Source: Arthrobacter sp. PAMC 25486 (GTDB lineage Bacteria; Actinomycetota; Actinomycetes; Actinomycetales; Micrococcaceae). Taken from it: a stretch of 64,000 bases of DNA. Both the position numbers and the translations under genes were made by a program. Location of the stretch: NCBI RefSeq assembly GCF_000785535.1, contig NZ_CP007595.1:620001-684000 (forward strand), in the 5' to 3' direction. Positions 1,106 through 55,794 of the stretch are shown piece by piece (positions within the stretch are counted from its first letter, which is position 1; every line of letters begins with the position of its first letter). The notes below the pieces were generated by a model that was not told where the DNA came from, searched no databases, and saw only the letters and a program-made list of their open reading frames with translations.

Positions 1106-1178
1106 ATTCGAGTTTGCAGTTGTTGGATTCTGCAATCGCTTTCCGGGCTCTTTTGGTCCAACAACTGCAAATTCGAAT
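1106..1178. repeat. Dispersed 73-nt inverted-repeat element, copy E1
   Basis: Two 22-nt arms (1106-1127 and 1157-1178) are reverse complements with one mismatch and flank a 29-nt loop. The arm core is GCAGTTGTTGGA. A second copy with the same architecture (22+29+22) and a homologous loop in reverse orientation lies at 55722-55794. E1 sits between def and rlmA, both on the plus strand, in a 262-base gap with no convincing gene. It is too long and lacks the T-run of a simple terminator; a mobile palindromic (REPIN-like) repeat is the best guess. Confidence 0.8.
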
Positions 1179-1291
1179 TCGTCAGTGCCCGAGAGTTGGG
1201 GACGCCACGGCGAGCAGTTCCGTCGACGAGTGACACCGCCTCTCGCACTGCGAGGCCACCCGGGAATTCTGGCCACGCCGCCGCCAGCCAC

Positions 1292-1297
1292 TAGGCT
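1292..1297 (+). promoter_or_regulatory. -10 box for leaderless rlmA
   Basis: TAGGCT fits TANNNT and ends six bases before the ATG at 1304, so transcription would begin at or next to the start codon. There is no ribosome binding site ahead of that ATG. No clear -35 is seen. Confidence 0.55.
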
Positions 1298-1303
1298 TGA
1301 TGG

Positions 1304-2200
1304 ATGGACACCGCCGCACTGAACTCCCTGCTCTGCCCGATCTGCGGCCTCGAATTCTCCGACAGCACGCCCCGGTCGCTTTCCTGCGGCAACGGCCACA
1401 GCTTCGACTTCGCCCGCCAGGGATACCTGAACCTGTTGACCGGGCACGGCACCAAGTTTGTCCCCGACACGGCCGCCATGGTTGAGGCCCGCGATGCTTT
1501 CCTCGACGCCGGCCACTATCAGCAGCTGGCCGACGCTCTGAGCGAGGGCGTGCGTGAGCTGCTCGCCGGCCGTGGTGCAGGGCCCGGGGTCGCATCGGAC
1601 GCCGAACCGGCACTGATCATCGACGCCGGCACGGGCACTGGCTACTACCTGCAGCACATCCTCGCCAAACTGGGGCAGGACGCCTCCCACAATGTTGCCG
1701 CGGTGGGATTGGACATTTCCAAGTTCGCCCTGCGCCGCGCCGCCCGCCGCAACCCCGATGCCGTGAACATTGTCTGGGACCTGTGGCGTGAGCTGCCGCT
1801 GGGAGCCGGGGTGGCCGACGTCGTGCTGGTCATTTTCGCACCCCGGAACAGCCGTGAGTTTGCCCGCATCCTTAAGCCCGGCGGCCACTTGCTGGTGGTG
1901 ACACCGCTGCCGGGACACCTGGCCGACATTGCCGACGAGGCCGGGCTGCTGGGTATCCAGGAGGACAAGGAAGCGGCGCTGAAGGAGTCGTTCGGTGGCG
2001 AGTTTGAGCTGCTCGGCAGCCAGGAACTCTTGGTGCCACTGCAACTGGCCCCGGCCGACATTGGCAATGTGGCCTTGATGGGGCCGGCGGGGCACCATAT
2101 GGATCCGGTGCAGCTGGGAGAGAAGCTGCGCCACCTGCCGGCGGTCACCGGGGCAACCGCAGCTTTCCGGATCTCGATGTTCCAGCCCCGAAGTGTTTGA
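1304..2200 (+). CDS. rlmA: RlmA-type 23S rRNA (guanine-N1) methyltransferase
   Basis: A 298-residue S-adenosylmethionine-dependent methyltransferase of the RlmA/TlrB family, which methylates N1 of a guanine in hairpin 35 of 23S rRNA. The N-terminal zinc ribbon is clear: Cys11, Cys14, Cys28 and His32. The SAM-binding motif DAGTGTG is at 107-113. In the family the enzyme targets G745 (RlmA-I) or G748 (RlmA-II, linked to tylosin resistance); the sequence alone does not tell me which. The gene stands alone between def and the convergent yczE. An ATG four bases upstream is out of frame. The start used is preceded by a -10 box and no ribosome binding site, so the message is probably leaderless. Confidence 0.88.
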   Translation: MDTAALNSLLCPICGLEFSDSTPRSLSCGNGHSFDFARQGYLNLLTGHGTKFVPDTAAMVEARDAFLDAGHYQQLADALSEGVRELLAGRGAGPGVASDAEPALIIDAGTGTGYYLQHILAKLGQDASHNVAAVGLDISKFALRRAARRNPDAVNIVWDLWRELPLGAGVADVVLVIFAPRNSREFARILKPGGHLLVVTPLPGHLADIADEAGLLGIQEDKEAALKESFGGEFELLGSQELLVPLQLAPADIGNVALMGPAGHHMDPVQLGEKLRHLPAVTGATAAFRISMFQPRSV

Positions 2201-2221
2201 GGCCAGTCGCCAGGCCAGGCG

Positions 2222-2902
2222 TCAGAGCGCTCCCTGATTGTTGGGCAGCGGTTCGAGGGGTTCATCCAGATTTACCATGGAGGAGCGTGGGCTCTTGGCG
2301 TGCAGGTCGACCCGCAGCCAACGCAACGTGAGCTGCGTCAGCGGCCCAACGCCCAAGGCGAAGGCCGCGGTTCCGGCGCCGACAACTCCGCCCAGGAAGA
2401 AGCCGACCACCACCACGCTGAGTTCAATCCCGGTGCGGATCAGCCACACCGGCCTGCCGCTGACCCGAACGAGTCCTGTCATCAAGCCGTCACGCGGGCC
2501 GGGGCCCAGGCCCGCGCCGATGTACAGCGCCGTGGCGAAGGCGAGCAGGAATAGGCCGGCGGCGAAGGACAGGACCTGCAGGGCCAGCTGATTGGCTTGC
2601 GGGATCAAGGCCAATCCGACGTCGGCAAACACGCCCACCAGAATGGCGTTGGCGAACGTGCCAAAACCCGGGCGCTGGCGCAACGGAATCCACAGCAGCA
2701 GGACCACGCCACTGATAACGATGGTGCACAGTCCAAAGGAAATCCCGGTGGTGCGGGAGAGCCCCTGTGCGAAGACGTCCCAGGGTGAGGCGCCGATGTT
2801 GCCGCGGATCATCAAGGCGATTGACACGCCGTACAGGGCGAGCCCCAGAAAGAGCCGGACGAGCCGGACTGGGAGCTTTTGGGTGGAAAAGAACGAGGTC
2901 AT
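2222..2902 (-). CDS. YczE/YitT-family membrane protein
   Basis: A 226-residue integral membrane protein with about five to six hydrophobic segments, beginning around residues 12-32. Characteristic pieces are the N-terminal RGNIGASPWDVFAQGLS and the internal GAGLGPGPRDGLMTGL, a duplicated G-x-S/G-P-W/R-D pattern typical of the YczE/YitT group. Transport substrate is unknown. It is divergently transcribed from the MocR regulator at 2962 with only 59 bases between start codons. In other bacteria yczE genes lie beside and are thought to be controlled by YczR-type MocR regulators, so the pair is probably one regulatory unit. The start ATG lies six bases behind a -10 box and lacks a ribosome binding site. 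Confidence 0.85.
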   Translation of the reverse strand: MTSFFSTQKLPVRLVRLFLGLALYGVSIALMIRGNIGASPWDVFAQGLSRTTGISFGLCTIVISGVVLLLWIPLRQRPGFGTFANAILVGVFADVGLALIPQANQLALQVLSFAAGLFLLAFATALYIGAGLGPGPRDGLMTGLVRVSGRPVWLIRTGIELSVVVVGFFLGGVVGAGTAAFALGVGPLTQLTLRWLRVDLHAKSPRSSMVNLDEPLEPLPNNQGAL

Positions 2903-2908
2903 GACTCA

Positions 2909-2914
2909 AGTTTA
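2909..2914 (-). promoter_or_regulatory. -10 box for leaderless yczE-like gene
   Basis: On the minus strand TAAACT ends six bases before the ATG at 2902. This is the same geometry as the divergent mocR gene, giving a compact back-to-back promoter pair. Confidence 0.5.
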
Positions 2915-2921
2915 GGCAAAC

Positions 2922-2964
2922 TGGCCTTATGCGGTAGAGCCAATTGCACTAAGGTGGCCTTATG
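2922..2964. promoter_or_regulatory. Direct-repeat operator candidate between yczE and mocR
   Basis: The decamer TGGCCTTATG occurs at 2922-2931 and again at 2955-2964, the second copy including the mocR start codon. The spacing is 33 bases, three helical turns, so both repeats face the same side of the helix. MocR/GabR regulators are known to bind spaced direct repeats. No other part of the 59-base gap is repeated. Confidence 0.6.
2950..2955 (+). promoter_or_regulatory. -10 box for leaderless mocR
   Basis: TAAGGT ends six bases before the ATG at 2962. It abuts the downstream operator repeat (2955-2964), so a bound regulator would cover the transcription start. AAGGTGG could also act as a close ribosome binding site. 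Confidence 0.5.
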
Positions 2965-4371
2965 AATTCCTTTGTCACCGGACGCCGACTGGCACGTGAA
3001 CTGGGTGAATGGCGCAGCAACGCCCCCGCCTACAAGGCACTCTCCGAGCGCATCCGTGTCCTTTTGATGGATGGCAGGCTGGCCAGCGGGGCAAAGCTGC
3101 CGGCCGAACGGGAGCTCAGCCAGGCGCTGGAGCTGAGCCGGACCACGGTGGCGGCAGCCTATTCAAAATTGCGCGACGACGGTTTTCTTGAGAGCGTGCG
3201 CGGTTCCGGCAGCACCTTGCGGCTGCCGGGCCGGGAACGCGGCGAACATGCCCTGCACGGCGGAATGGCCCTTGACTTTACGAAGGCAACCGCCCCCGCC
3301 TATCCCGGGCTGCACGCCGCCTATGCTGCCGCCGTGCAGGAACTGTCCAGCTACCTGGGCCATGACGGCTTTGACCTGGTGGGCCTGCCAGACCTCCGTG
3401 AAGCACTCGCACAGCATTACCGTGACAGGGGCCTGCCCACCTCCGCGGACCAGATCATGGTCACCATCGGGGCCCAGCATGCACTGAACCTTGTCACCCG
3501 GACGCTCTACTCCCCCGGGGAACGGATTTTGGTTGAACAACCCAGCTACCCGCATGCGCTGGACACCTTTGCCTCCGTGGGCGCCCGTGTTCTGGCATTC
3601 CCCGTCCGGCAGGACGGCGGCTGGGACCTGCCCGAGGCCCTGCTGCAGATCCGGCGGGCGGCCCCCAGCCTGGCATTCCTCATGCCGGACTTCCACAATC
3701 CAACCGGCATGAGCATGTCGCTTCACGAGCGAGAATACCTGGCAGCGGCGGCGGCCCGGGAAGGCACCGTGCTGGTGGTGGATGAAACCACGGCGCACCT
3801 GGACATCGACAGGGGCCCCCTGCCTCCCATGGCCACCTTCAACCCGAACATTCTCACCCTGGGTTCCCTGGGAAAGATCGCCTGGGGAGGCTTGCGGGTT
3901 GGCTGGGTGCGCGGACCACGGGAAATCCTGGCCCAACTCCTGCGCAACCGGCCCGCCGTCGACCTTGGCACCCCGCTGCTGGAACAGCTGGTGGCCACCC
4001 GGCTGGTGCAGGATTGGCCCACCATGGTGGCCAGCCGCAGCGCCGAGCTGCGCCGTGGCCGCGACACGGCTGTTGCACTGTTGCGGGAGCAGTTGCCGCA
4101 GTGGCAAGTGGAGGTGCCCGACGGTGGGTTGTGCCTGTGGATCAACACTGAAACCATTTCCAGCTCCGCCCTGGCTCTTGCGGCACGGTCACAGGGTCTG
4201 GGGATCGTGCCCGGCCCCCGGTTTGGCATTGACGGCGCCTTTGAACGGTATTTGCGGCTGCCGTTTTGTTATGCCGACGAGGATTTGCGCGAGGCGGTGG
4301 CCATTCTGGCCCGGCTGAGCCGGGAGGTGGGATCGGACCCGTTGAGAATGCCATTGCAGGCCGTCATTTAG
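2962..4371 (+). CDS. MocR/GabR-type transcriptional regulator (GntR HTH + aminotransferase)
   Basis: A 469-residue regulator combining an N-terminal GntR winged helix (about 25-90; PAERELSQALELSRTTVAAAYSKL) with a fold-type-I aminotransferase domain that serves as a PLP sensor. The PLP lysine is most likely Lys305 in LGSLGKIAWGG. Length is normal for the family. Its partner is the divergent membrane protein yczE, the arrangement described for the YczR subgroup of MocR regulators. Spaced direct repeats in the shared promoter are the probable binding site, which would make the gene autoregulated. It is probably not an active transaminase. Effector and substrate of the pair are unknown. Confidence 0.92.
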   Translation: MNSFVTGRRLARELGEWRSNAPAYKALSERIRVLLMDGRLASGAKLPAERELSQALELSRTTVAAAYSKLRDDGFLESVRGSGSTLRLPGRERGEHALHGGMALDFTKATAPAYPGLHAAYAAAVQELSSYLGHDGFDLVGLPDLREALAQHYRDRGLPTSADQIMVTIGAQHALNLVTRTLYSPGERILVEQPSYPHALDTFASVGARVLAFPVRQDGGWDLPEALLQIRRAAPSLAFLMPDFHNPTGMSMSLHEREYLAAAAAREGTVLVVDETTAHLDIDRGPLPPMATFNPNILTLGSLGKIAWGGLRVGWVRGPREILAQLLRNRPAVDLGTPLLEQLVATRLVQDWPTMVASRSAELRRGRDTAVALLREQLPQWQVEVPDGGLCLWINTETISSSALALAARSQGLGIVPGPRFGIDGAFERYLRLPFCYADEDLREAVAILARLSREVGSDPLRMPLQAVI

Positions 4372-4437
4372 CCGCATTTTCCCAGCTGCGCGTAGTAGGC
4401 TCGTAGCTACGCAATATAAGTCTCTAAGGGGGACTCA

Positions 4438-4923
4438 ATGCTTGAATGGATTAATGACTTTGGTTGGATCATCTGGCTAACGGTGTTCCTGCTGTTGGCC
4501 GTTGCCGAGATGCTGACATTGAACCTGTACTTCATCTTGATGTCGGTGGGTGCCCTGGCCTCGCTGGTGGCATTCCTGTTCGGCGCTGAGTTGTGGCTGC
4601 AGATTGTCATCTTCTGCGTTGTTGCCCTCGCCACTACGGTGCTCATCAGACCACTGGCTCTTGCCCACCTGCACCGCGGGCCTGCCGACCAGCTCTCCAA
4701 TGTTGACCGCCTGATCGGCCACAAGGCCGTGGTTCTGGAAACGGTTGGCATGGGTGGCGGCCTGGTGAAGATCGGCGGCGACATTTGGACCGCCCGCATT
4801 TCCGGCGGCAGTGAATTGCCTGTCGGCGCAGCAGTGGAAGTCTCTGCCATTGACGGCGCAACCGCAATCGTGAGCGGCCCGTCCGCACACAAGCCTGCGG
4901 GAACAGCCACAACAACTGCTTAG
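4438..4923 (+). CDS. NfeD-like membrane protein
   Basis: A 161-residue short NfeD protein. The N-terminal third is hydrophobic with about three membrane segments (roughly 8-28, 32-50 and 53-72), followed by a soluble OB-fold-like domain with GHKAVVLETVG and a glycine-rich VGMGGGLVKIGGDIW strand pair. NfeD proteins pair with SPFH-domain proteins of membrane microdomains, and a slipin gene follows directly at 5003. A good ribosome binding site (AAGGGGGACTCA) precedes the ATG. The 79-base gap to the slipin gene holds a nested hairpin, so the two may be expressed in different amounts. Confidence 0.9.
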   Translation: MLEWINDFGWIIWLTVFLLLAVAEMLTLNLYFILMSVGALASLVAFLFGAELWLQIVIFCVVALATTVLIRPLALAHLHRGPADQLSNVDRLIGHKAVVLETVGMGGGLVKIGGDIWTARISGGSELPVGAAVEVSAIDGATAIVSGPSAHKPAGTATTTA

Positions 4924-4972
4924 CTGCAGCCACGCACGCGGGTGCATGCCCGCGTGCCGAAAATGGCTGCAG
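4924..4972 (+). other. Nested hairpin between nfeD and slipin
   Basis: An outer 9-bp stem (4924-4932 with 4964-4972) encloses a perfect 9-bp stem (4934-4942 with 4949-4957) with loop TGCATG. There is no T-run, so it is more likely an mRNA processing or stability element, or a partial terminator, than a full terminator. Confidence 0.6.
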
Positions 4973-5002
4973 AACATCTTTATATAGAAAAGAGGGGATT
5001 TC

Positions 5003-5938
5003 ATGGGAGACGGAGCCGGCACCATTGTTTGGCTGTTTGTTGTTTTAGTCCTGCTGATATTCGTAGTAATAGTCCTTGTCCGTTCGGTGCGCATCATTCC
5101 GCAGGCTCGTGCGGGCGTCGTCGAACGGCTCGGAAAGTACCAGCGCACACTCAACCCCGGCCTGACGGTGCTCATTCCATTCGTGGACCGTTTGCTGCCG
5201 CTGTTGGACTTGCGCGAGCAGGTTGTATCCTTCCCGCCGCAGCCCGTGATCACCGAAGACAACCTTGTGGTCTCCATCGACACGGTCGTCTATTTCCAGG
5301 TCACCGACCCGCGTGCAGCAACCTACGAGATCGCCAACTACATTCAGGCCGTGGAGCAGCTGACCACCACCACCCTGCGTAACGTTGTGGGTGGTTTGAA
5401 CCTTGAAGAGGCGTTGACCTCCCGTGACCAGATCAACGGCCAGCTTCGCGGCGTCCTTGATGAGGCCACGGGCCGCTGGGGCATTCGCGTCAGCCGTGTT
5501 GAGCTCAAGGCCATTGACCCGCCACTGTCGATCCAGGACTCCATGGAGAAGCAGATGCGCGCAGAGCGTGACCGCCGTGCCGCCATCCTGACGGCCGAAG
5601 GCACCAAGCAGTCAGCCATTCTGACTGCTGAAGGTGAGCGCCAGTCCTCCATTTTGAAGGCTGAGGGTGATGCCAAGGCGGCGATCCTGCGTGCAGATGG
5701 TGAATCCCAGGCTATCCAGAAGGTCTTCGGCGCCATCCACAAGGGCAATCCGACGCAGAAGTTGCTGGCCTACCAGTACCTGCAGACGCTGCCCAAGATC
5801 GCCCAAGGAACGTCCAATAAGCTGTGGATCATTCCCAGCGAAGTTGGCGAGGCGCTGAAGGGCATTGGCAACGTTTTGGGGACCACCACCCCTGATACGG
5901 ACGACGCCGGTGAGCCCGCCACGGGTGCCCAGGTTTAG
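5003..5938 (+). CDS. Slipin/paraslipin, SPFH-domain protein
   Basis: A 311-residue stomatin-like protein. Residues 8-27 form one membrane anchor, followed by an SPFH/band-7 domain (about 28-185) with the family signature IIPQARAGVVERLGK. Residues 193-237 carry four 11-residue repeats of the type AAILTAEGxKQ, which form the oligomerising coiled coil. Slipins assemble large ring-shaped membrane complexes and are usually encoded beside an NfeD partner, as here. The family is sometimes annotated as QmcA or HflC-like; no protease domain is present. The gene is followed by a strong hairpin at 5972-6012. Confidence 0.92.
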   Translation: MGDGAGTIVWLFVVLVLLIFVVIVLVRSVRIIPQARAGVVERLGKYQRTLNPGLTVLIPFVDRLLPLLDLREQVVSFPPQPVITEDNLVVSIDTVVYFQVTDPRAATYEIANYIQAVEQLTTTTLRNVVGGLNLEEALTSRDQINGQLRGVLDEATGRWGIRVSRVELKAIDPPLSIQDSMEKQMRAERDRRAAILTAEGTKQSAILTAEGERQSSILKAEGDAKAAILRADGESQAIQKVFGAIHKGNPTQKLLAYQYLQTLPKIAQGTSNKLWIIPSEVGEALKGIGNVLGTTTPDTDDAGEPATGAQV

Positions 5939-5971
5939 CCCCGGCGCTGCCTAAGTATTGTTCGGAACCCG

Positions 5972-6012
5972 CCGCGCGGCCAAACACGTATAATAGGTGT
6001 TTGGCCGCGCGG
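5972..6012 (+). terminator. Hairpin terminator after slipin gene, with a -10 box in its loop
   Basis: Arms 5972-5987 and 5997-6012 form a perfect 16-bp GC-rich stem followed by CATTTTG. The nine-base loop (5988-5996) contains a perfect TATAAT at 5989-5994, about 120 bases ahead of rbpA. A GGAAC at 5964-5968, 19 bases ahead of GTAT, is reminiscent of a SigR/SigH-type -35 and rbpA is a SigR target in Streptomyces. Terminator and rbpA promoter may therefore overlap. Confidence 0.65.
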
Positions 6013-6114
6013 CATTTTGCCCGGCCACAACTTTTTCGCCTCATCCACACAGAGCAGGAACAACTGGCGGATGAGCAGCGTTGAACCAACAGTGAACTAC
6101 TTGAGGGAGAAGTC

Positions 6115-6456
6115 ATGAGCGATCGCAGTCTGCGTGGTATGCGCCTGGGCGCACAGAGCATGGAAACCGAATCCGGTGTGGAGCCGGCCCCCCGTCAGCG
6201 TGTGGAGTACCGATGCGCTGACGGTGAGCAGGTGTTTGTCATGTTTTCCAGCGAAGCCGAGATTCCGGCAACCTGGACATCCAAGACCGGCAAGGAAGCC
6301 TTGCTCGTCAACGGAGAAGCACCCGACACCTCCAATGACAAGCCCATCCGCACCCACTGGGACATGCTTCTGGAACGCCGCTCGCTGCCCGAGCTGGAAG
6401 TTATCCTGGCCGACCGGCTGACCATCCTGCGCGAAAAGCGCGGCGAAAAGGTCTAA
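6115..6456 (+). CDS. rbpA: RNA polymerase-binding protein RbpA
   Basis: A 113-residue RbpA, the actinobacterial protein that binds RNA polymerase and the principal sigma factor and stabilises the open complex. The order of parts matches the family: a flexible N-terminal tail (SDRSLRGMRLGAQSMETE), a core domain (about 25-72; VEYRCADGEQVFVMFSSEAE), a linker, and the C-terminal sigma-interaction helix pair (HWDMLLERRSLPELEVILAD). A good ribosome binding site (GAGGGAGAAGTC) precedes the ATG. The gene is monocistronic between two hairpins and convergent with ppm1, the same neighbourhood as Rv2050/Rv2051c in M. tuberculosis. Confidence 0.97.
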   Translation: MSDRSLRGMRLGAQSMETESGVEPAPRQRVEYRCADGEQVFVMFSSEAEIPATWTSKTGKEALLVNGEAPDTSNDKPIRTHWDMLLERRSLPELEVILADRLTILREKRGEKV

Positions 6457-6472
6457 GCAAGGGCTAGTGCAA

Positions 6473-6506
6473 CAAACGCCCCTGGGAGCATTCCCAGGGG
6501 CGTTTG
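6473..6506. terminator. Bidirectional terminator between rbpA and ppm1
   Basis: A perfect 15-bp stem (6473-6487 with 6492-6506) with loop GCAT, followed by CTTTT on the plus strand. It lies between two convergent genes and can serve both. Confidence 0.9.
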
Positions 6507-6552
6507 CTTTTAACTCTGAAATCTATGGGGCGGATGAATTTGTTCTAAGGGT

Positions 6553-7284
6553 TCACTTGGTGCGGCGGGTGAGCTTGTTCCAGCGGGCGGCCAGTCCCCA
6601 TTTGGTGACGTTGACCATGGCTTCCTGGACAATGTTGCCGCTCATCTTGGAGGCGCCAAACTCACGTTCAACGAACGTGATGGGAACTTCCACGACCGTC
6701 AGGCCCTTTTGGCAGACACGCCACAGCATGTCCACCTGGAAGCCGTAACCAACCGATTCAACGGAGTCGAAATCCAGGGCTTCCAGGGTGGCGCGCTTGA
6801 AGGCGCGGTACCCGCCTGTCACATCCCGGATGGGGATGCCCAACAGCACACGCGAGTACAGGCTGCCGCAGGTGGAGATCAACTTGCGGTGCAGCGGCCA
6901 GTTCACGACCTTGCCGCCGGGGATCCAGCGGGAGCCAAGCACCAGGTCCGCACCCTGCTCAATGCCGTCCAGCAACAGCGGCAGCTGCTCGGGCTGGTGG
7001 GAGCCGTCGGCGTCCATCTCAACAAGCACGTCGTAGCCGGCCGCAAGGCCCCAGGTGAAACCTGCAAGGTAGGCGGCCCCCAGCCCTTCCTTTCCTGCGC
7101 GGTGCAGGACATGTACCTGTGGGTCCTTGGCAGCAAACTCGTCGGCCAGGGCGCCCGTGCCGTCAGGGCTGTTGTCATCGGCGATGAGAACGTCCGAATG
7201 GGGCACTGCGGCCCGAAGGCGGGTCAGCGTCTTGGGCAACGACTCAATCTCGTTGTAGGTGGGGATAATCGTCAGGACACGCAA
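6553..7284 (-). CDS. ppm1: Polyprenol-phosphate mannose synthase (GT2)
   Basis: A 243-residue family 2 glycosyltransferase that transfers mannose from GDP-mannose to polyprenyl phosphate at the inner face of the membrane, supplying mannose for lipoglycans and protein O-mannosylation. Motifs: IIPTYNE near the N-terminus, DDNSPDGTG at 36-44, the metal-binding DAD at about 91-93, and GYGFQVDMLWR in the acceptor region. I chose the TTG at 7284 because it has a ribosome binding site (GAAAGG) and gives the usual family start RVLTIIPTYNE; the open frame extends 26 codons further. In mycobacteria Ppm1 is fused or paired with an Lnt domain; that domain is absent here. Confidence 0.9.
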   Translation of the reverse strand: MRVLTIIPTYNEIESLPKTLTRLRAAVPHSDVLIADDNSPDGTGALADEFAAKDPQVHVLHRAGKEGLGAAYLAGFTWGLAAGYDVLVEMDADGSHQPEQLPLLLDGIEQGADLVLGSRWIPGGKVVNWPLHRKLISTCGSLYSRVLLGIPIRDVTGGYRAFKRATLEALDFDSVESVGYGFQVDMLWRVCQKGLTVVEVPITFVEREFGASKMSGNIVQEAMVNVTKWGLAARWNKLTRRTK

Positions 7285-7419
7285 AAATTGCTGCCTTTCA
7301 GTTCTGACAGCACTGGGAAGCAAAGTGTTGCCTCCACCAGTGCCAGCATGCGGTGTCTGCACAAGATACGCGGGCAGACCAAGTCAATGCTCAAGTATAA
7401 GTGAGGAGTCTGGGGAAAA

Positions 7420-7515: not shown

Positions 7516-7623
7516 TCCATATGTCGGTAAGACGGTCTCCCGCACCGACCGGGTGCCTCCCCCAAAAGGAGGCTCTCCGCTCCCCTAAAGCTAATTGCCC
7601 GCTCTCTTGCTGTCAACATGGCG

Positions 7624-16108: not shown

Positions 16109-16158
16109 CTAGGCGCCACGATTGTTACGCCCATGGCCCCGCCGTCGCCTTTAAGCAT

Positions 16159-16224
16159 CTGACCCGCAGTAGTGGCTGCAAAACACGTCAAAATTAGTGT
16201 TAAACAGCCACTACTGCGGGTCAG
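16159..16224. repeat. 66-nt perfect inverted repeat, element E4
   Basis: Two perfect 20-nt arms (16159-16178 and 16205-16224) flank a 26-nt loop that can itself pair AACAC with GTGTT. The arm core GCAGTAGTGGCTG resembles the E1/E2 core GCAGTTGTTGGA. It lies between the FKBP gene and pafBC on the minus strand. It may end the upstream transcript or be a distant member of the dispersed repeat family. Confidence 0.7.
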
Positions 16225-16261
16225 TTCAAGAGGCTTGCGCAGCGCTGGGAGCGGACTGCTG

Positions 16262-45079: not shown

Positions 45080-45088
45080 CTTACGGTT

Positions 45089-45156: not shown

Positions 45157-45211
45157 CGAGAATAGGTTGTGCTTGCGGAGTTTTTTCCCCGTCTCTCTCC
45201 TTCGCCGCCGC

Positions 45212-45265
45212 GAACTGGCAGTAGGTGCCGTCAAATCGCTTTTTTGGGAACAACAACTGCCAGCT
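45212..45265. repeat. Hairpin H3 of the array (relative of element E1/E2)
   Basis: Arms 45212-45229 and 45248-45265 match at about 13 of 18 positions. The right arm contains AACAACAACTGCCAGC and the loop AAATCGCTTTTTTGGG, both resembling parts of E1 (AATCGCTTT, TTTTGG, CAACAACTGC). It looks like a decayed or shortened copy. Confidence 0.6.
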
Positions 45266-45313
45266 CACGAAGGCGTAGAGCTTGTTCGATGCCGACCCTG
45301 GTTAGGACATTCG

Positions 45314-46663: not shown

Positions 46664-46669
46664 ACTCTC

Positions 46670-48214: not shown

Positions 48215-49650
48215 GCGCCCCTGAATTGACCCCTGAAGAAATCCAAAATTGCCTCAAGGTTTTGGAGAACATCCACGTCTACGACGAAGAACATCCCGAC
48301 TATGTCCTGGTACGCCGGGCCACAGGAAAGATGTTCAAAGCCGTCAAGCGGCACCGCCGGGTCGTCAAGCGTGACGCCATCAACGACGCCGACAAGGCCG
48401 TCATTGCGCTGACCGCGACGGCGGCGCCGGACCGCATCGACGATGAGACACGGGGCAACAAGCTCAAACCCTCAACGACTGGCGACACGGCGGGGACGCT
48501 TCTGCGCTCCCGCCCCTGCTACATCTGCAAACAGCATTACACCCAGGTCGATGCCTTCTACCACCAGCTGTGTCCGGACTGTGCCGCGTTCAACCATTCC
48601 AAGCGCGACGCGCGGACCGACCTCAGCGGCAAGACTGCCCTCCTCACGGGTGGGCGCGCCAAAATCGGCATGTACATTGCCCTGCGCCTCCTGCGCGACG
48701 GTGCACACACCACCATCACCACCCGTTTCCCGAAGGATGCAGCCCGGCGTTTCGCCGCCACGGAAGACAGCAGCGAATGGCTGCACCGGCTGCGCATCGT
48801 AGGCATCGACCTGCGCGACCCCACCCAGGTTGTGGCCCTGGCCGATTCCCTCAACGAGGCCGGCCCCCTCGACATCATCATCAACAACGCGGCACAGACC
48901 GTGCGCCGTTCCGGCAACGCCTACAAGCCGCTGGTTGATGCCGAGCTCGAGGATCTTCCCACGGACACCCCCATGCCCGAACTGGTCACCTTCGGCCACG
49001 CCCATGACAAGCACCCCCTGGCGCTGGCCACGCAAATGCTGGAACACCCCAAGCTGGCCGGTGACGAGCTTGCGTCGCTGGCGCTCTCTATGGGCTCGGC
49101 CTCGCTGGAGCGCATCGAGGCAGGCACGGCCATTGACGCCGGGGGCCTCGTCCCCGATGTGGCGGCCATCAACAGCTGGACCCAGGTCGTCGACCAGGTC
49201 GACCCGCTGGAGATGCTCGAGGTCCAGCTGTGCAACGTCACGGCACCGTTCCTGCTCGTCTCACGCCTGCGTCCGGCCATGACGGCATCCACCGCGCACC
49301 GCAAATACATTGTGAACGTCTCCGCCATGGAGGGACAGTTCTCCCGCGCCTACAAGGGTCCCGGCCACCCGCACACCAACATGGCCAAGGCCGCCCTGAA
49401 CATGCTCACCCGCACCAGCGCCAAGGAGATGCTCGACGCCGATGGCATCCTCATGACCGCGGTCGACACCGGCTGGATCACCGACGAACGCCCGCACTAC
49501 ACCAAGGTGCGCCTGGCTGAAGAAGGCTTCCACGCACCCCTTGACCTGGTGGATGGCGCAGCGCGGGTCTACGACCCGATCGTGATGGGAGAGTCCGGCG
49601 AGGACCAATACGGTGTCTTCCTCAAGGACTACAAGCCCAGCCCGTGGTGA
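48211..49650 (+). CDS. Atypical SDR with N-terminal zinc-ribbon-like module
   Basis: A 479-residue short-chain dehydrogenase-like protein. Residues 1-100 are charged and unassigned; residues 103-124 hold CYIC and CPDC (Cys103, 106, 121, 124), a likely zinc ribbon. The Rossmann part starts near 140 with [12 protein letters not shown] (146-157) and NNAAQ (226-229). About 100 residues are inserted before the active-site strand. The catalytic Ser is Ser371, and Lys393 fits the YxxxK lysine, but the tyrosine position is Thr389 (TNMAK); Tyr381 is near. It is translationally coupled to glgC upstream and the YeiH gene downstream. Substrate unknown. Confidence 0.88.
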
Positions 49651-50711
49651 TGCCCGACGCCGGCAGTCCCGGTTTCGCTGCGACGGCACGTACGCTGGCT
49701 CCCGGCTTGGGCGTCGCCCTGGCCGCGGTGGCCGTCTCCCTCCTGGTCCACGCACTGGTGCCGATGCTCCCGGCCATGACGGTCGCCGTCGTGCTTGGCA
49801 TTGCAGCGGTCAACCTGCCAGGAACGTCGGCGCTGTGCCAGGGGCCGTGGCGGAAGGGGCTGAATTTTGCTGGGAAGCACCTGATGCGCGCCGGCATTGT
49901 CTTCCTGGGCCTCAAGCTCAGCCTGGGCGACATCATGGACCTTGGCTGGCTCAGCGTGGCCCTCATCATTTCCGTGGTGCTGCTCAGTTTTGCCGGCACG
50001 CTGGTGCTGGGCAAGCTGTTCCGGCTGGCGGGCGACACTCCCTTGCTGATTGCTACGGGCTTTTCCATCTGCGGCGCGTCCGCAATCGGCGCCATGGCCG
50101 CGGTCAAGGGCACTAAGCATGAGGACACCGTCATCCCGGTGGCCCTGGTGACGCTGTGTGGCACGCTCGCCATCGGTATTCTGCCGCTGCTGATGAATCC
50201 GCTTGGGCTCAGCACACTGCAGTTCGGCCAGTGGGTGGGCGCCGGAGTCCACGATGTGGGACAAGTGGTGGCCACGGCACAGACCGCCGGCGCGGTTGCC
50301 CTGAGCGCCGCCGTGGTGGTCAAACTGACCCGTGTTGTGCTGCTGGCCCCCATTGTTGGCGTGGCCGGTGCGCTTGAGCGCAAGCGCCATGCCCAGGCCC
50401 TGGAGCTCAAACGCGCGGCCAGCGCCGACCCCGTGGCGGCCCCCAAGTTCCCACCCGTGATCCCCCTGTTCGTGATCGGCTTCCTGCTCATGGCGGCGCT
50501 GCGCACCACAGGTTGGCTGCCCGAGGGTGCCATTGAGGCTGGCGCACTGGGCCAGGACATCACACTGGGTGCGGCACTGTTCGGGTTGGGCTCCAGTGTC
50601 CGGGTCCGCGAGCTGCTGGCCACCGGGTTGCGGGCCACGCTCATGGCGCTGTGTTCCTGGGTTCTGATTGCCGCGCTGGCATTCGGCGCGGTGCACCTGA
50701 TGTCGGCCTGA
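49650..50711 (+). CDS. YeiH-family putative sulfate exporter
   Basis: A 353-residue membrane protein of the YeiH family (Cons_hypoth698), with about ten membrane segments. Family markers are RAGIVFLGLKLSLGDI, the GFSICGASAIGAMAAVKG segment, and GVHDVGQVVATAQ. Members have been proposed to export sulfate or related anions; this is not proven. The ATG at 49650 overlaps the SDR stop (TGATG); GTG 49647 and 49644 are alternatives. It ends the glgC-SDR-yeiH run of overlapping genes. Confidence 0.88.
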   Translation: MPDAGSPGFAATARTLAPGLGVALAAVAVSLLVHALVPMLPAMTVAVVLGIAAVNLPGTSALCQGPWRKGLNFAGKHLMRAGIVFLGLKLSLGDIMDLGWLSVALIISVVLLSFAGTLVLGKLFRLAGDTPLLIATGFSICGASAIGAMAAVKGTKHEDTVIPVALVTLCGTLAIGILPLLMNPLGLSTLQFGQWVGAGVHDVGQVVATAQTAGAVALSAAVVVKLTRVVLLAPIVGVAGALERKRHAQALELKRAASADPVAAPKFPPVIPLFVIGFLLMAALRTTGWLPEGAIEAGALGQDITLGAALFGLGSSVRVRELLATGLRATLMALCSWVLIAALAFGAVHLMSA

Positions 50712-50772
50712 CCCGCCCTTCTCAACTCAGCAGCCTTTGCTGACTTGATCCACCTTTTCCAAGGGTCCGTGA

Positions 50773-53436
50773 TTGAATGAATTGGTGTCCAATTTTAATC
50801 TTTTGCGAAGCGAAGCAGCTGCCCGAAAATCCCTCATCACGGTTCACAACTATGACGTTGACCTTGACCTGAGCCTGGCCGAAGACCCCACGGTCCCAGG
50901 CTTCCCCAGCACCACCACCATCACCTTCGCGGCGGAGGTGCCGGCGGATGACTCCGCTGCCGATGAAGCGACGGAGCAGGCCGGCACGTTCCTTGACTTC
51001 ATCGGACTCAGTGTTGAGTCGGTTGTCCTAAACGGCACCTCCCTGGCTGTCAGCGAGGTGGTGGACGGCTCCCGCATCCACCTGCCGAACCTGGCTGCCG
51101 AGAACGAAGTGGTGGTCGCCGCCACTGCCGCGTACTCCAGCAGCGGCGAGGGCCTGCACCGCTTCGTCGATCCCGCCGACGGCAAGACCTACACGTATAC
51201 ACAGTATGAGCCGGCCGATGCGCGCCGCGTCTTTGCGAACTTTGAACAGCCCGATTTGAAGGCCCCTTACACTTTCCGCGTGACCGCCCCCAACGGCTGG
51301 GAAGTTGCCTCGAACCAGTCGGTGGCCCGCCATGACGTGCTGCCGGAGACCGGAGCCCGCCGCTGGGACTTCGCGCCCACCCTGCCCATCTCCACCTACA
51401 TCACCACCGTCCTGGCGGGGCCGTACTTCAAGGTGGAGGACCACTTCTCCATGACCTTTGGCGCGGACAGCGCCCACGCCGGCCAGGAGCTGGAGATCCC
51501 CCTGGCCGCTTATTGCCGGGCCTCCCTCGCGGGCCACTTTGATGCCGCTGAGATCTTCACGGTCACCAAGGCTGGCCTGGCGTACTTCAACGAGCTCTTC
51601 GACTACCCGTACCCCTTCGGCAAGTACGACCAGGCCTTCGTGCCCGAATACAACCTCGGCGCGATGGAAAATCCGGGCCTCGTCACCTTCACCGAGGCGT
51701 ATCTGCACGCCTCCCGCGCCACCGACACCGCCTACCAGCAGCGCGCCAACACGATCATGCACGAGATGGCGCACATGTGGTTTGGAGATCTCGTCACCAT
51801 GGGTTGGTGGGACGATTTGTGGTTGAAGGAATCGTTTGCCGACTTCATGGGCCACCTCGCCGTGGCCGAAGCCACCCCCTGGGGGCCAAAGTCCTGGGTC
51901 ATGTTCGCCAGCCGGCGCAAGGCCTGGGCGTACACGCAGGACCAGCTCCCCACCACACACCCCATCGTCGCCGACATTCCCGACCTGGAAGCCGCCAAGG
52001 CCAACTTTGACGGCATCACCTACGCCAAGGGCGCCTCCGTGCTCAAACAGCTTGTGGCGTACGTGGGCCAGGACGCGTTCATCGCCGGCTCGCGGGAGTA
52101 CTTCAGGACCCATGAGTACTCCAACACCTCCCTGGGCGACCTGCTGGACCCGCTCAGCAAAGCCTCGGGCCGCGCCCTAGACGAGTGGGCCGGCCAGTGG
52201 CTGGGCACCTCCGGCATGTCCACGCTGACCCCCGACCTGGACATCGACAAGGGCGCCGTCAGCTCCCTGACCATCACCCAGACGGCCATCGACCCGGTCA
52301 CCGGCAGCGAAGCCCTACGCCCGCACCGCCTGGCAGTTGGCTTTTTCAAGTACGACGCCGGAGCCCTGGTCCGGAGCGAATCGTTCACCATCGATGTGGT
52401 GGGGCAGGAGACGGTGGTTGCCGAGGCTGTTGGGCGCCCGTCCCCCGACCTGGTACTGGTCAACGACCAGGACCTGAGCTATGCCAAGGTTCGCCTGGAC
52501 GCTGCTTCGCTCAGCACAGCCCTGACCGGTGTGGGCACCATTGCGGACCCGCTGGCACGCAGCCTCGTGTGGTCGGCGCTGTGGAACGCCACGCGAGACG
52601 CTCTCCTGCCTGCCGCCGTATACCTGCGCACGGTGGTGGCCCACGCAGGAGGCGAGGCAGACACCAGCCTGCTGCAGACCCTGGCGGACAATGCACTGTC
52701 GGCCTTGGAACATTACTGCCCGGCCCCTGATCGTGCCGGCGCCGCGGAACTGTTGCGTGCCGGTGTCGAACACCATTTGCAGGAGGCGGCGCCGGGCAGC
52801 GACGAACAGCTCATATGGGCGCGCACCCTGGCGCTGCTGGGCCGCGGCGCCGACGCGGTCAACCCGCGCAGCCGTGAGTGGCTGGCGGGAGTCAACGTTC
52901 CGCCCGGGCTGGTGGTTGACGGCAGCCTACGCTGGCTGCTGTGGCAGCAGCTGGCGGCACGCGGCGCGGCGACCGTGGCCGATGTGGATGCTGAATTGGC
53001 GGCGGACACGACGGCCGAGCACCGGGCCAACCACTGCACGGCGATTGCCGCACTGCCGGTGGCGGAGGGCAAGGCACAGCGTTGGCAGGAAGCCGTTGCG
53101 GAAACGGCGCTCAGCAATGAACTGCTCAGTGCCACGATTGCCGGCTTCACGGTGGGCGACGCCGCGCTGCTGGAGCCGTTCATCGAGCCGTACTTCCTGG
53201 CCATTGAGGACGTGTGGAACGGCCGGAGCCTGGAAATTGCGGGGCGCATTGTGCGCGGGCTGTTCCCCCTGTCCCAGGATCTGGTGCCCGGCACCTCCCC
53301 CGAGCACCATCCCGTGGTGCACCGCACCGACGGCTGGCTCGCTGGGCACCCGGCTGCGGCGCCCGGGCTGCGGCGGATGGTGATCGAGCAGCGGGACCAG
53401 TTGCTGCGGGCGCTGCGGGCACAGGCTGCGGCTTAA
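50773..53436 (+). CDS. pepN: Aminopeptidase N (M1 family)
   Basis: An 887-residue M1 zinc aminopeptidase. The exopeptidase motif GAMEN is at 296-300; the zinc site HEMAH is at 330-334 with the third ligand Glu353 in KESFADF. The C-terminal ERAP1-like helical domain is complete (about 530-887). It cleaves N-terminal residues from peptides and so completes peptide breakdown after the proteasome. The start is probably the TTG at 50773, seven bases after AAGGG; GTG 50785 is an alternative. It is monocistronic. Confidence 0.95.
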   Translation: MNELVSNFNLLRSEAAARKSLITVHNYDVDLDLSLAEDPTVPGFPSTTTITFAAEVPADDSAADEATEQAGTFLDFIGLSVESVVLNGTSLAVSEVVDGSRIHLPNLAAENEVVVAATAAYSSSGEGLHRFVDPADGKTYTYTQYEPADARRVFANFEQPDLKAPYTFRVTAPNGWEVASNQSVARHDVLPETGARRWDFAPTLPISTYITTVLAGPYFKVEDHFSMTFGADSAHAGQELEIPLAAYCRASLAGHFDAAEIFTVTKAGLAYFNELFDYPYPFGKYDQAFVPEYNLGAMENPGLVTFTEAYLHASRATDTAYQQRANTIMHEMAHMWFGDLVTMGWWDDLWLKESFADFMGHLAVAEATPWGPKSWVMFASRRKAWAYTQDQLPTTHPIVADIPDLEAAKANFDGITYAKGASVLKQLVAYVGQDAFIAGSREYFRTHEYSNTSLGDLLDPLSKASGRALDEWAGQWLGTSGMSTLTPDLDIDKGAVSSLTITQTAIDPVTGSEALRPHRLAVGFFKYDAGALVRSESFTIDVVGQETVVAEAVGRPSPDLVLVNDQDLSYAKVRLDAASLSTALTGVGTIADPLARSLVWSALWNATRDALLPAAVYLRTVVAHAGGEADTSLLQTLADNALSALEHYCPAPDRAGAAELLRAGVEHHLQEAAPGSDEQLIWARTLALLGRGADAVNPRSREWLAGVNVPPGLVVDGSLRWLLWQQLAARGAATVADVDAELAADTTAEHRANHCTAIAALPVAEGKAQRWQEAVAETALSNELLSATIAGFTVGDAALLEPFIEPYFLAIEDVWNGRSLEIAGRIVRGLFPLSQDLVPGTSPEHHPVVHRTDGWLAGHPAAAPGLRRMVIEQRDQLLRALRAQAAA

Positions 53437-53527
53437 CTGCAAGCCCGCGTAGCGAATAACAGCGCAACGGCAGGCGGGCGCCGTCGGGCTTGGCCTGCTG
53501 TGACGGATGGTGCGGGGCGTTTGCGGT

Positions 53528-54595
53528 CTAGGCTGCAGGCGTCCCTCGCCGCACCCAGCGGAGGAACGTGGCGGTCATGCCCAGGACAACCGCAAGCCAC
53601 GCCGCCACAGCAACCCAGGTTGCCACATTGCCAACCCACGCCACAAGGGGCATGTGGTTCTCCGTGCCGAACCTATACGTTGCCACGGCAAACATGCCCA
53701 ACGGAAACACGATCGACCACAGGGCAGTGGTGTAGCGCACCGGCTCGCGCCGCACCACATGGCGCCAGAAGCCGAAGGCCACCAGCAGCGGCACCCACCA
53801 CAGCCCAAACGCCCACAGGAGGTAGCTGATGCCGCCCACCGTGGGGCCGGCCATGGCGATGACGGGTACCTCGGACGGCAGGTGCAGGATCATCGACCCG
53901 GCCAAGACGGTGATGGCGGTGGCACCCATGAAGATCCAGTTGGTCGGCACAATCCCGCCCAGGTTTTCACCGCCCGTCAGCAACCGCAGCATGACAAGGG
54001 TCGTGAGGGTGAGATACAGCATGATGCCCACGCCCCACAATGCCACCGCCGCGTCGCTGAGCAGCCGGACACTGCTGCCGCCCGAGGCCAGGGAGGCGGC
54101 GGCCATCGACAGTGACTGGGTGGAGACCACCCACAGGAACCAGGTGCCGTCCACGGGCAGCAGCCGCGGGCGCAGCGCCTCACCAATTTCGGTGCGCAGC
54201 ATCATCGACAGCGGAACGCCGTAGGCCAGGAACAGCCAGAGCGGGATGCTCATGGCTGCCATGATCCAGGTGACGGCCGGCGCCACCGGATGGAAACCAA
54301 TGCCCACCACGTTGATGGCGGCCACCATGGTCAGGTAGCCGAAACCCTTGTGCGGGTTGCGGAAGTCAGCGACGGCCTCGTCCGTGTGGTTCAGCAGGCG
54401 GCCGAGCAGGCCGATGAACAGCAGTGCCAGGCCACCGACGGCGATCCACAGCAGCGTCCAGGACGCCACGGTCCAGCCGGCGTCGAGCAGGGCGGAGGCA
54501 ACAATGCCCGTGGCCATGACGAAGGCAAACGAGGCCGGCGGCTGGTTAGGCCACCGGCTCCTCAGCGTCGCGGCGGTGCGGGCACGTGAACTCAT
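53528..54595 (-). CDS. TDT-family (TehA/SLAC1-like) transporter
   Basis: A 355-residue membrane protein with about ten segments, of the tellurite-resistance/dicarboxylate transporter (TDT) family. Characteristic pieces are ASFAFVMATGIVASAL in the first helix, GTWFLWVVSTQSLSM and HLPSEVPVIAMAG. Members transport anions such as malate, sulfite or nitrate; the substrate is open. It starts at ATG 54595, overlapping the stop of the lipoate ligase gene by four bases (ATGA), so they are coupled. The open frame six codons longer is not used. Confidence 0.9.
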   Translation of the reverse strand: MSSRARTAATLRSRWPNQPPASFAFVMATGIVASALLDAGWTVASWTLLWIAVGGLALLFIGLLGRLLNHTDEAVADFRNPHKGFGYLTMVAAINVVGIGFHPVAPAVTWIMAAMSIPLWLFLAYGVPLSMMLRTEIGEALRPRLLPVDGTWFLWVVSTQSLSMAAASLASGGSSVRLLSDAAVALWGVGIMLYLTLTTLVMLRLLTGGENLGGIVPTNWIFMGATAITVLAGSMILHLPSEVPVIAMAGPTVGGISYLLWAFGLWWVPLLVAFGFWRHVVRREPVRYTTALWSIVFPLGMFAVATYRFGTENHMPLVAWVGNVATWVAVAAWLAVVLGMTATFLRWVRRGTPAA

Positions 54596-55653
54596 GGGAC
54601 CCGGTGCAGCCACTCGTCTGTGCCGAACTTCGTCTCAACCCTGCGCGCCGCCTCCGCCAGTTCGGCCTCGGTCAGGGTGGAGGGCCGGGCGCCGTAGCGG
54701 GCGGTAAACGTCTCGGACATGCGGGCCAGGATTTCCGCCCGGCTCATGCCGCTCTGGCGCCGCAGCGGATCCACGCGCTTCTTCGCGGAGCGGGTTCCCT
54801 TATCCGACAGTTTTTCCTTGCCGATCCGCAACACTTCCACCATCTTGTCGGCGTCGATGTCGTAGCTCATGGTCACATGGTGGACCATGGCGCCGTTGCT
54901 CAGGCGCTTCTGGGCGGCTCCGCCAATCTTGCCCTTGTCGGTGGCGATGTCGTTGAGCGGGACATAGAACGCCTCGATGCCCATGGATTCCAGTGCGGCC
55001 AGCACCCAGGCGTCAAGGAACTTGTACGAGTCTTCAAAGTTCAGCCCGTCCACCAGGGTCTGGGGCAGGTACAGGGAGTAGGTGATGCAGTTTCCGGCCT
55101 CCATGAACATGGCCCCCCCGCCACTGATCCGGCGCACCACGTTGATGCCGTATTTTTCGACGCCGGCCGGGTCCAGTTCGTTGCGCACCGACTGGAAGGA
55201 GCCAATCACCACGGACGGCTCGTCCCAATCCCAGAAACGCAGGGTCGGGTTGCGCCGCCCGGCACCCACCTCTTCGGCGAGCACCTCGTCCAGGGCGACA
55301 TTGATGGCAGTGGGCAGCACCGTCGGTGCGATCACGTCCCATTCGTGGTCAATCCAGCTTGTTGCCTTGGTCAGTGCCCGGCGGACGGTGATGGCGACTG
55401 CCTGGGCCGAGAAGCCAAATAGCACGGCGTCAGGCGGCAGGGCTGCCGTGATGGCATCCGCCAATGCTTCGGCAGGCAGCGAGGCCGACAAGCCGTTCAG
55501 TGCATCGTTGATGCGCTCCAGCGCCTCGTCGGGTTCCAGGAAGAAATCTCCGCTGACACGGACTCCCTTGAGGAGCCCGTGCGCCACCTGGACGTCAACG
55601 ACCACCAATTTTCCGCCATGGACCTTATATTCGCCGTGCAGTAGAGAAGACAT
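54592..55653 (-). CDS. lplA: Lipoate-protein ligase with accessory domain first
   Basis: A 353-residue lipoate-protein ligase that attaches lipoic acid to dehydrogenase complexes and the glycine cleavage H protein. Residues 5-90 (HGEYKVHGGKLVVVDV, GVRVSGDFFLEPDE) correspond to the accessory domain normally found at the C-terminus of LplA. The catalytic domain follows at about 105-353: RFWDWDEPSVVIGSFQ, RRISGGGAMF and the KIGGAAQKR loop with the key lysine. The permuted order is also seen in other actinobacterial ligases. Coupled to the TDT gene. Confidence 0.9.
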   Translation of the reverse strand: MSSLLHGEYKVHGGKLVVVDVQVAHGLLKGVRVSGDFFLEPDEALERINDALNGLSASLPAEALADAITAALPPDAVLFGFSAQAVAITVRRALTKATSWIDHEWDVIAPTVLPTAINVALDEVLAEEVGAGRRNPTLRFWDWDEPSVVIGSFQSVRNELDPAGVEKYGINVVRRISGGGAMFMEAGNCITYSLYLPQTLVDGLNFEDSYKFLDAWVLAALESMGIEAFYVPLNDIATDKGKIGGAAQKRLSNGAMVHHVTMSYDIDADKMVEVLRIGKEKLSDKGTRSAKKRVDPLRRQSGMSRAEILARMSETFTARYGARPSTLTEAELAEAARRVETKFGTDEWLHRVP

Positions 55654-55721
55654 GACTCCATCTTCCCGTCACACGGGCTCCACGCAAAACCACTCCGCAA
55701 CCTCGAACTTGGGCCCGCTGG

Positions 55722-55794
55722 AATCGAGTACGCAGTTGTTGGACCAAAAAGCTCCGGAATTCGCTTTCCGAGTCCAACAACTGCGTACTCGATT
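55722..55794. repeat. Dispersed 73-nt inverted-repeat element, copy E2
   Basis: Perfect 22-nt arms (55722-55743 and 55773-55794) flank a 29-nt loop. Arm core GCAGTTGTTGGA is identical to E1 at 1106-1178. The loop matches the reverse complement of the E1 loop at 19 of 29 positions, so the copy is inserted the other way round. It lies directly beside the rpmE2 terminator in the gap between lplA and rpmE2. Confidence 0.85.

What the first reader, a model, noticed from the sequence alone, without database searches (positions are those of the whole stretch)
1106..55794. Dispersed 73-nt palindromic element with homologous loops, two full copies in opposite orientation
E1 (1106-1178) and E2 (55722-55794) have identical architecture (22-nt arm, 29-nt loop, 22-nt arm), share the arm core GCAGTTGTTGGA, and the E2 loop matches the reverse complement of the E1 loop at 19 of 29 positions. 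Arm bases that differ between copies differ symmetrically in both arms in E2, which indicates selection or a copying mechanism that keeps the hairpin. H3 (45212-45265) and E4 (16159-16224) look like shorter or diverged relatives. This fits a mobile REPIN-like family that would depend on a transposase-like protein encoded elsewhere.
Basis: seen in the sequence. Interest (0 to 1): 0.75.

Follow-up and report, generated by a model that had tools for sequence, protein, structure and literature searches.

The report
Hairpins paired with homing-type nuclease genes
The two hairpins belong to a family of about forty look-alike hairpins scattered at gene ends in a soil bacterium, and such hairpin families appear to have partner genes for a DNA-cutting enzyme that sit between two copies of the hairpin, which looks like an undescribed kind of selfish genetic element.

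Summary
Confirmed and extended. E1 and E2 are two of at least 41 copies (examined) of a 77-nt palindrome family in this 4.59-Mb genome; E4 is a diverged relative, H3 a doubtful one. Copies lie at gene 3' ends (0 of 42 between divergent genes), stems covary, and same-genus species carry the family, partly at the same loci but with other outer arms. The REPIN/RAYT reading fails: copy-rich relatives have no Y1 transposase. The family instead has a partner gene: a 314-aa protein with an AbiEi-like N-terminal half and a Vsr/I-Bth0305I (EDxHD homing endonuclease) C-terminal domain, bracketed by family hairpins in four species. The pattern recurs: 18 of 68 scanned nuclease loci in 23 same-genus genomes are bracketed by look-alike hairpins of their own kind, against 0 of 227 control genes. 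A second G000 nuclease has a second, dispersed palindrome family. The cassette is present, decayed or absent at one conserved locus. Best reading: a palindrome-targeting, homing-like nuclease drives conversion and spread of its hairpins. The association is well supported; the mechanism is inferred. Nine searches of the held open-access library listed nothing like it.

The parts
1104..1180 (-). E1: 77-nt family member, arms 1106-1127 and 1157-1178, 29-nt loop; between two tandem genes, 66 nt after a stop codon; the same locus in G002 carries a copy with other outer arms (L157)
   Evidence: (78.1 bits)
55720..55796 (+). E2: 77-nt family member, arms 55722-55744 and 55772-55794; begins right after the T run of the terminator-like hairpin (55799-55832, minus strand) of an 84-aa gene that I take for rpmE (not searched); no R1-family hairpin at this locus in 22 of 22 same-genus relatives
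   Evidence: (83.9 bits)
16154..16229 (+). E4: diverged relative with CTGACCCGCAGTAGTGGCTG arms; a similar element in G012 (L036, CTGACCCGCAGTTGTGGTTG)
   Evidence: 23.5 bits, E 5e-6; z -11.5
45206..45271 (-). H3: doubtful, degenerate relative; one exact CAACAACTGC arm; arms resemble the short-loop variant of L045/L116 (by eye)
   Evidence: 11.5 bits, E 0.14; z -0.9

Best explanation
E1 and E2 are solo, non-coding members of a palindrome family that is the target and by-product of a homing-like selfish gene. The gene (G000:C1:1419541-1420482, outside the window) codes for a 314-aa protein: an AbiEi-like N-terminal half, which would recognise the palindrome, joined to a Vsr/I-Bth0305I-type nuclease domain, which would cut it, perhaps as a hairpin or cruciform. 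Repair of the cut from another copy would (a) convert palindromes at other loci to the local sequence type, giving species dialects and swapped halves, (b) copy the whole palindrome-nuclease-palindrome cassette into occupied sites, and (c) leave solo hairpins where cassettes are lost. Copies survive mainly at gene 3' ends, where a strong hairpin is tolerated or useful as a terminator. Related nucleases would each home to their own palindrome. Shown here: the family, its covariation, its gene-end positions, shared loci with changed sequence, nuclease-palindrome pairing at part of the nuclease loci, cassette presence/absence, the predicted fold. Inferred: binding, cutting, and conversion as the driver.
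Against: Most nuclease loci (46/68) lack hairpins on both sides at my threshold. G015, G003, G007 and G012 hold 3-7 strand hits with no close intact homologue, and G002 holds 56 although its homologue is split; these need loss after spread. R1 finds no hairpin at G003's decayed cassette. Outer-arm test is mixed: orthologue identity lies below the paralog mean in only 10 of 23 pairs; concerted change is clear in G006 (within-genome 0.87), weak in G000 (0.63). No single-base empty site or target duplication was resolved, the flanks of relatives being 74-93% identical. The phylum sample was uninformative. Two homologues on StoSoilB13 plasmids have a hairpin on one side only. No relative among viral contigs with the two peptide patterns used. 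No biochemical evidence.
Confidence: 0.6

Rival explanations
1. The palindromes are operators and terminators of the nuclease genes: the AbiEi-like half binds inverted repeats to autoregulate, the nuclease serves defence or addiction, and dispersed copies are regulon sites or strays.
Against: Hairpins on both sides, also after the stop codon; dispersed copies sit at 3' ends, 0 of 42 between divergent genes, where an operator would hardly act; loops share sequence, and their direction does not follow the gene's (7 with, 12 against among 19 tandem copies, counted).
Confidence: 0.17
2. Locus-bound intrinsic terminators that look alike through shared ancestry or selection; the nuclease genes merely settle beside terminators.
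For: 33 of 70 relative entries lie at a G000 copy locus by flank match, about a third of them one-sided, a few paralogous; gene-end positions.
Against: E2 hairpin absent in 22 of 22 relatives while the neighbouring terminator is kept in several; loops conserved; bracketing hairpins look alike within a locus but mostly differ between loci.
Confidence: 0.1
3. A MITE-like element with 22-nt terminal inverted repeats, moved by an unidentified DDE transposase.
For: Near-perfect inverted arms, small size, dispersal; a 200-nt member with a filled loop (L086).
Against: No unpaired exact arms in G000: the 37 exact GCAGTTGTTGSAY sites (reversed control 4) all fall in hairpin copies (by coordinates), though one diverged half arm lies beside the L088 cassette; outer ends vary by species and in step; no target duplication seen; nuclease pairing unexplained.
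Confidence: 0.06
4. REP/REPIN elements moved by a RAYT.
For: Same gene-end distribution and hairpin form (REP side recalled).
Against: Y1 transposase absent from 21 of 23 genomes, incl. G002, G006, G010, G013.
Confidence: 0.02

Closest known systems
REP/REPIN elements with their RAYT (Y1 HUH transposase)
   Same: Short dispersed palindromes at gene 3' ends; an enzyme gene bracketed by palindromes; more than one family per genome, each with its own enzyme (REP side recalled)
   Different: Enzyme is a Vsr/EDxHD-type nuclease with an AbiEi-like half, not a Y1 transposase; one long 22-bp stem with a mostly 27-29-nt loop; no GTAG/GTGG foot (motif recalled)
EDxHD homing endonucleases (I-Bth0305I) and free-standing homing genes
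   Different: Putative target is a multi-copy palindrome that brackets the gene, on bacterial chromosomes and not in an intron or phage; AbiEi-like N-terminal half
Vsr mismatch endonuclease / DUF559 / PF18741 REase_MTES_1575
   Different: Known Vsr is a repair enzyme (recalled); no palindrome link in the papers listed
AbiEi antitoxin (type IV toxin-antitoxin)
   Different: Fused to a nuclease; AbiEii neighbour not looked for
TRIT, sequence-conserved terminators of Mycobacterium tuberculosis (recalled; the name seen in passages of PMC3526491)
   Same: Dispersed look-alike hairpins at gene ends in an actinobacterium (recalled)
   Different: No partner nuclease known to me; sequences not compared

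Membership tests
REP/REPIN | RAYT (Y1 transposase) gene in copy-rich genomes | tested here: not met
   PF01797 found in 2 of 23 same-genus genomes; none in G002, G006, G010, G013; the G000 one is IS605-type
REP/REPIN | Dispersed intergenic palindromes, avoiding divergent promoters | tested here: met
   23 convergent, 19 tandem, 0 divergent, 1 caller artefact among 43 copies incl. E4 and H3 (heuristic ORF caller)
REP/REPIN | Two separate inverted REP units, each with its own small hairpin and GTAG/GTGG foot (recalled) | tested here: not met
   One stem of 22 pairs with foot ATC...GAT; halves are modular in sequence but not separate hairpins
Homing endonuclease gene (EDxHD) | I-Bth0305I/Vsr catalytic fold | tested here: met
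Homing endonuclease gene (EDxHD) | Conserved E, D, H, D | tested here: met
   E208, D240, H257, D266 in 37 of 37; equivalence to the catalytic residues inferred from motif order, not aligned residue by residue
Homing endonuclease gene (EDxHD) | Gene sits in its own target site, with presence/absence between relatives | tested here: inconclusive
   Presence/absence clear at the L088 locus; G000 half-arm layout fits insertion into an older hairpin; exact junctions unresolved
Homing endonuclease gene (EDxHD) | Site-specific cleavage and repair-driven copying | not testable with these tools
   Needs biochemistry and genetics
AbiE type IV toxin-antitoxin | AbiEi beside an AbiEii nucleotidyltransferase toxin | not tested
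   Neighbours not scanned for AbiEii
MITE of a DDE transposon | Target-site duplication and a parent transposon with the same ends | tested here: inconclusive
   No duplication obvious by eye in flanks; no unpaired exact arms in G000
Intrinsic terminator | GC-rich hairpin followed by a U tract | tested here: inconclusive

The most novel reading that the evidence does not exclude
A large, unrecognised class of bacterial selfish element in Micrococcaceae and perhaps other actinobacteria: many lineages of AbiEi-Vsr fusion nucleases, each homing to its own self-specific palindrome. This gives dozens of nuclease-palindrome pairs that co-diverge, spread solo hairpins to gene ends, convert them in concert into species dialects, and may be timed by a DnaA-box-like element upstream of the gene.
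Probability: 0.42. Interest if true: 0.92.

Novelty: new variant of a known kind. Interest (0 to 1): 0.82.

Why it matters
It proposes a role for an abundant group of uncharacterised actinobacterial genes (4-15 matches per genome in 23 same-genus genomes) and an enzyme for a palindrome family that REP logic could not explain. It would show that REP-like organisation has arisen with a second, hydrolytic enzyme class, and would supply many natural nuclease-target pairs whose specificity co-evolves and can be tested directly. It also suggests how a genome's 3'-end hairpins can be rewritten in concert.

Tried and rejected
REPIN/RAYT: rejected by the Y1 census. Cross-phylum spread: pattern hits in 'Sporosarcina beigongshangi' (L064, L068, L074) looked like transfer to Bacillota, but the contig length 377059 is shared with G013, which the genome tool places in the window's own genus, so the deposited name is probably wrong. 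Of the 40 stretches I scored 18 with R1: besides Arthrobacter-type and 'Sporosarcina' ones, L047, L053, L057, L058, L059, L061 and L076 scored; the other 22 I judged chance by eye and did not score. Autonomous long element with the same ends: the arm search in six relatives was at background, because trailing N were ignored and only a 10-mer was searched. Uptake-sequence analogy dropped: too few copies. Structured RNA: one Rfam hit in the window, a tRNA, and loop direction does not follow gene direction. Plasmids/phages with one copy as query: one partial hit each, the plasmid one on the ERGS1:01 replicon already in hand; viral contigs none. Phylum-wide PF18741: 54 of 119 genomes have a match, but the loci returned were mostly long proteins or wrongly framed by my scripts, so nothing is concluded. 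Two StoSoilB13 plasmid homologues each show a hairpin on one side only. Low-probability Foldseek rows to other nucleases were ignored, two of them with better E-values than I-Bth0305I.

Limits: R1 counts rest on 150 scored candidates per genome and a cut list. G028-G032 were not. The 68 nuclease loci are part of 177 matches; L228 and L229 (split or fragmented genes) were fetched but left out. Controls come from the window, its 20 kb of flanks, the E2-locus relatives and G000 copy loci; the last set is rich in hairpins by construction. In one search L303, L318, L321 and L324 lie near contig ends, so their gene coordinates were off; no controls from other genera were made. The 70 entries hold two copies entered twice (L074/L183, L064/L167).

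Papers: PMC3526491 passages seen; PMC7319586, PMC6083498, PMC10448857 abstract starts in listings only; no other paper opened. All nine paper searches show capped listings or none; none listed a nuclease-palindrome pairing of this kind. Most subscription papers are not held.
Full report
OBSERVATION. The window is G000:C1:620001-684000 of a 4.59-Mb single-contig genome. E1 and E2 are as described. An exact-arm pattern finds 15 loci genome-wide, reversed control 0. A covariance model from these 15 (R1) gives 88 strand hits in G000; I fetched and read 41 loci of the family, the listing being cut. E4 is a relative (23.5 bits), H3 is not secure (11.5 bits, E 0.14; fold z -0.9).

ANATOMY. Typical copy: outer arm of 9 nt (commonest ATCGAGTAC), core GCAGTTGTTGGAC, loop mostly of 27-29 nt, then the reverse. 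On 33 G000 copies of equal length, 12 of 22 pairs have changes on both sides, 44 compensated cells against 12.6 in shuffles, and 91.9% of cells pair against 25-37% with partners slid (11 of the 15 copies that gave the structure are among the 33, which favours the paired percentage). Loop halves look modular, and some copies have unlike outer arms (L111, L081, L051, L035), as if halves were exchanged (by eye).

POSITION. With a rough ORF caller, 43 copies (E4 and H3 included) lie 23 between convergent genes, 19 between tandem genes, 0 between divergent genes, 1 inside a spurious ORF. Among the 19 tandem copies the loop runs with the genes in 7 and against them in 12 (counted). E2 begins right behind the T run of the neighbouring terminator-like hairpin.

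RELATIVES. In one search, of 17 other same-genus genomes 13 have hits (G002 56, G013 49, G006 35, G010 32 strand hits, nine others 1-7) and four have none (G001, G008, G009, G014); 0 of 10 genomes of other families have any. Named members: G006 = Arthrobacter sp. ERGS1:01 (contig and position match NZ_CP012477.1), G010 = Arthrobacter sp. SDTb3-6 and G016 = A. cryoconiti by matching contig lengths. The closest named proteins bear the name Specibacter. E2: R1 finds nothing at its locus in 22 of 22 relatives; three of them carry an unlike hairpin there. But 33 of 70 relative entries lie at a G000 copy locus by flank match (two copies entered twice; about a third one-sided, a few paralogous), E1 among them (G002 L157). 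At such loci the arms differ: all 26 arms of 13 G006 copies end in TGTT before the core; TGAC is the commonest ending in G002 and G013; GAGTAC the commonest in G000 (34 of 82 arms). Mean outer-arm identity within genomes is 0.87 (G006), 0.72 (G002), 0.68 (G013), 0.63 (G000). For 23 orthologous pairs the means are: orthologue 0.59, G000 paralogs 0.61, partner-genome paralogs 0.74, G000 copy against non-orthologues there 0.56; the orthologue lies below the paralog mean in only 10 of 23, since several G000 copies keep older types. At L114, L095, L099 and L090 a 77-nt copy faces a 67-70-nt copy in another species, which points to replacement and not point change.

THE PARTNER GENE. In G000 locus L088 two copies lie about 1 kb apart and bracket a 314-aa gene; the same in G006 (L164). 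R1 also finds hairpins on both sides of its homologue in G010 (L192) and G028 (L195), and on the downstream side in G013 (L193) and G002 (L197); beside the more distant paralogs given to it it finds none, except L224 (short-loop variant) and a weak hit at L198; it also finds none at G003's decayed gene (L338). In a Frankineae MAG, outside the window's family, two core-sharing hairpins of L047 bracket a gene of the same protein family (27% identity; 238.8 bits to a model from alignment A2, which includes this protein, so that score is not independent).

A RECURRING PATTERN. One search found 177 matches in 23 of 23 same-genus genomes. I scanned 68 of these loci (L191-L260 without L228, L229): upstream hairpin 33, downstream 41, both 22, both and alike 18. 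Controls: window with 10-kb flanks 62 genes (up 5, down 6, both 0, alike 0), E2-locus relatives 59 (6, 7, 1, 0), genes around G000 copies 106 (30, 33, 1, 0). The palindromes mostly differ between loci, e.g. L234 TTGAGGGCCCAGATAATCCG, L239 ATCGAGTGATCGATACATCG, L247 CGCGAGTTGCCAC, L253 TCGGTGGTGCAGCT; L226 and L260 are related. Loci of one orthologous group are not independent, so the p-value (5e-13) is optimistic. In other genera of the family 7 of 27 loci have alike pairs (the both-sides count of 10 includes L318, where one hairpin was counted twice). A second G000 nuclease (L226) is bracketed by GTGAGATATGGCGA palindromes; elsewhere in the genome lie three full hairpins of that kind, one degenerate and one half, reversed control 0.

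COPY NUMBER. Of 18 genomes with both counts, the five with 30 or more R1 strand hits are the five with a homologue of at least 69% identity and over 400 bits (Fisher 1e-4; G000 is itself the source of query and model); rank correlation with best bits 0.62 (0.54 without G000). In G002 the homologue is split in two pieces, in G003 it is in fragments.

CASSETTE LOCUS. Between the two genes flanking the L088 cassette, 23 genomes: full cassette in G000, G006, G028, and G017 (58% nuclease with unlike palindromes); G010 has the left gene, hairpins and nuclease (right side not seen); G003 decayed; G032 a partial match. No insert, spacer 18-47 nt or less: G015, G007, G014, G016, G005, G001, G031. Other sequence, mostly other palindromes, without nuclease: G002 92 nt, G009 112, G008 114, G030 168, G013 338. 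Another gene: G012, G029, G004. G011 unclear. At a second locus G011 has a nuclease cassette (L239) where G000 (L099) and G013 (L181) have solo hairpins; with 68 loci and 41 sites one such coincidence could be chance. In G000 a half arm with GCAGTTGTTAGACC precedes the first hairpin and resembles the last arm of the second, while the inner arms resemble each other (GCACTCGTT): the layout expected if a cassette landed inside an older hairpin (my reading).

MECHANISM. An AbiEi-like half could bind inverted repeats (AbiEi does, PMC7319586 abstract start), the Vsr/EDxHD half could nick or cut, and repair from another copy would homogenise arms, carry the cassette into occupied sites and leave solo hairpins. 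This joins the dialects, mosaic halves, shared loci, bracketed genes and cassette polymorphism. The cutting and the direction of cause are not shown. How wholly new sites such as E2 are reached is open; insertion behind a terminator is one hint.

COMPARISON AND NOVELTY. It works like REP/RAYT in layout and, by inference, like a homing endonuclease in action, but fails the RAYT test and so is not filed as REPIN. I rate it a new variant of a known kind; if homing to own palindromes is proven it would be a class of its own.

Noticed in passing
L191-L260 (same-genus nuclease loci): 39 of 68 nuclease genes carry the exact 9-mer TGTGGATAA (a DnaA-box sequence, recalled) in the sense direction 47-117 nt before the protein-match start; about 0.02 expected from background (1 in 677,646 strand bases). 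In other genera 4 of 27, where several matches start late in the protein and the upstream stretch may be missed.
   Followed up: partly
L086:2018-2218: A 200-nt family member whose loop holds about 140 nt of coding-like DNA (by eye); G013 has an ordinary 77-nt copy at that locus (L186).
   Followed up: no
L016 (G000:C1:443915-447280): The only Y1 match of the genome is an IS605-type tnpA divergent from a tnpB; its reading frame seems to run into a neighbouring gene's antisense strand, so it may be damaged.
   Followed up: no
L064, L068, L074: The genome deposited as Sporosarcina beigongshangi REN13 appears to be G013, which lies in the window's own genus: the name looks wrong.
   Followed up: partly
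L122, L125, L126 (E2 locus in G032, G013, G007): Unlike long hairpins (CCCGCAGCCGCGG, GACCCGCGCCTGGCGG, GGCCCGCAGCCGGCGG) stand where other relatives keep the terminator beside E2; they resemble E4 by eye and may be another nuclease-linked family.
   Followed up: no
L225 and L227 (G000): A nuclease paralog and a nuclease fragment elsewhere in the genome share one palindrome (TTCGAAACTGCAGATCNGGCGA or nearly so, 58-nt loop).
   Followed up: no
L331, L332 (G002, G013): At the cassette locus, repeated GAAGCAGCAG palindromic units without a nuclease, several in a row in G013.
   Followed up: no
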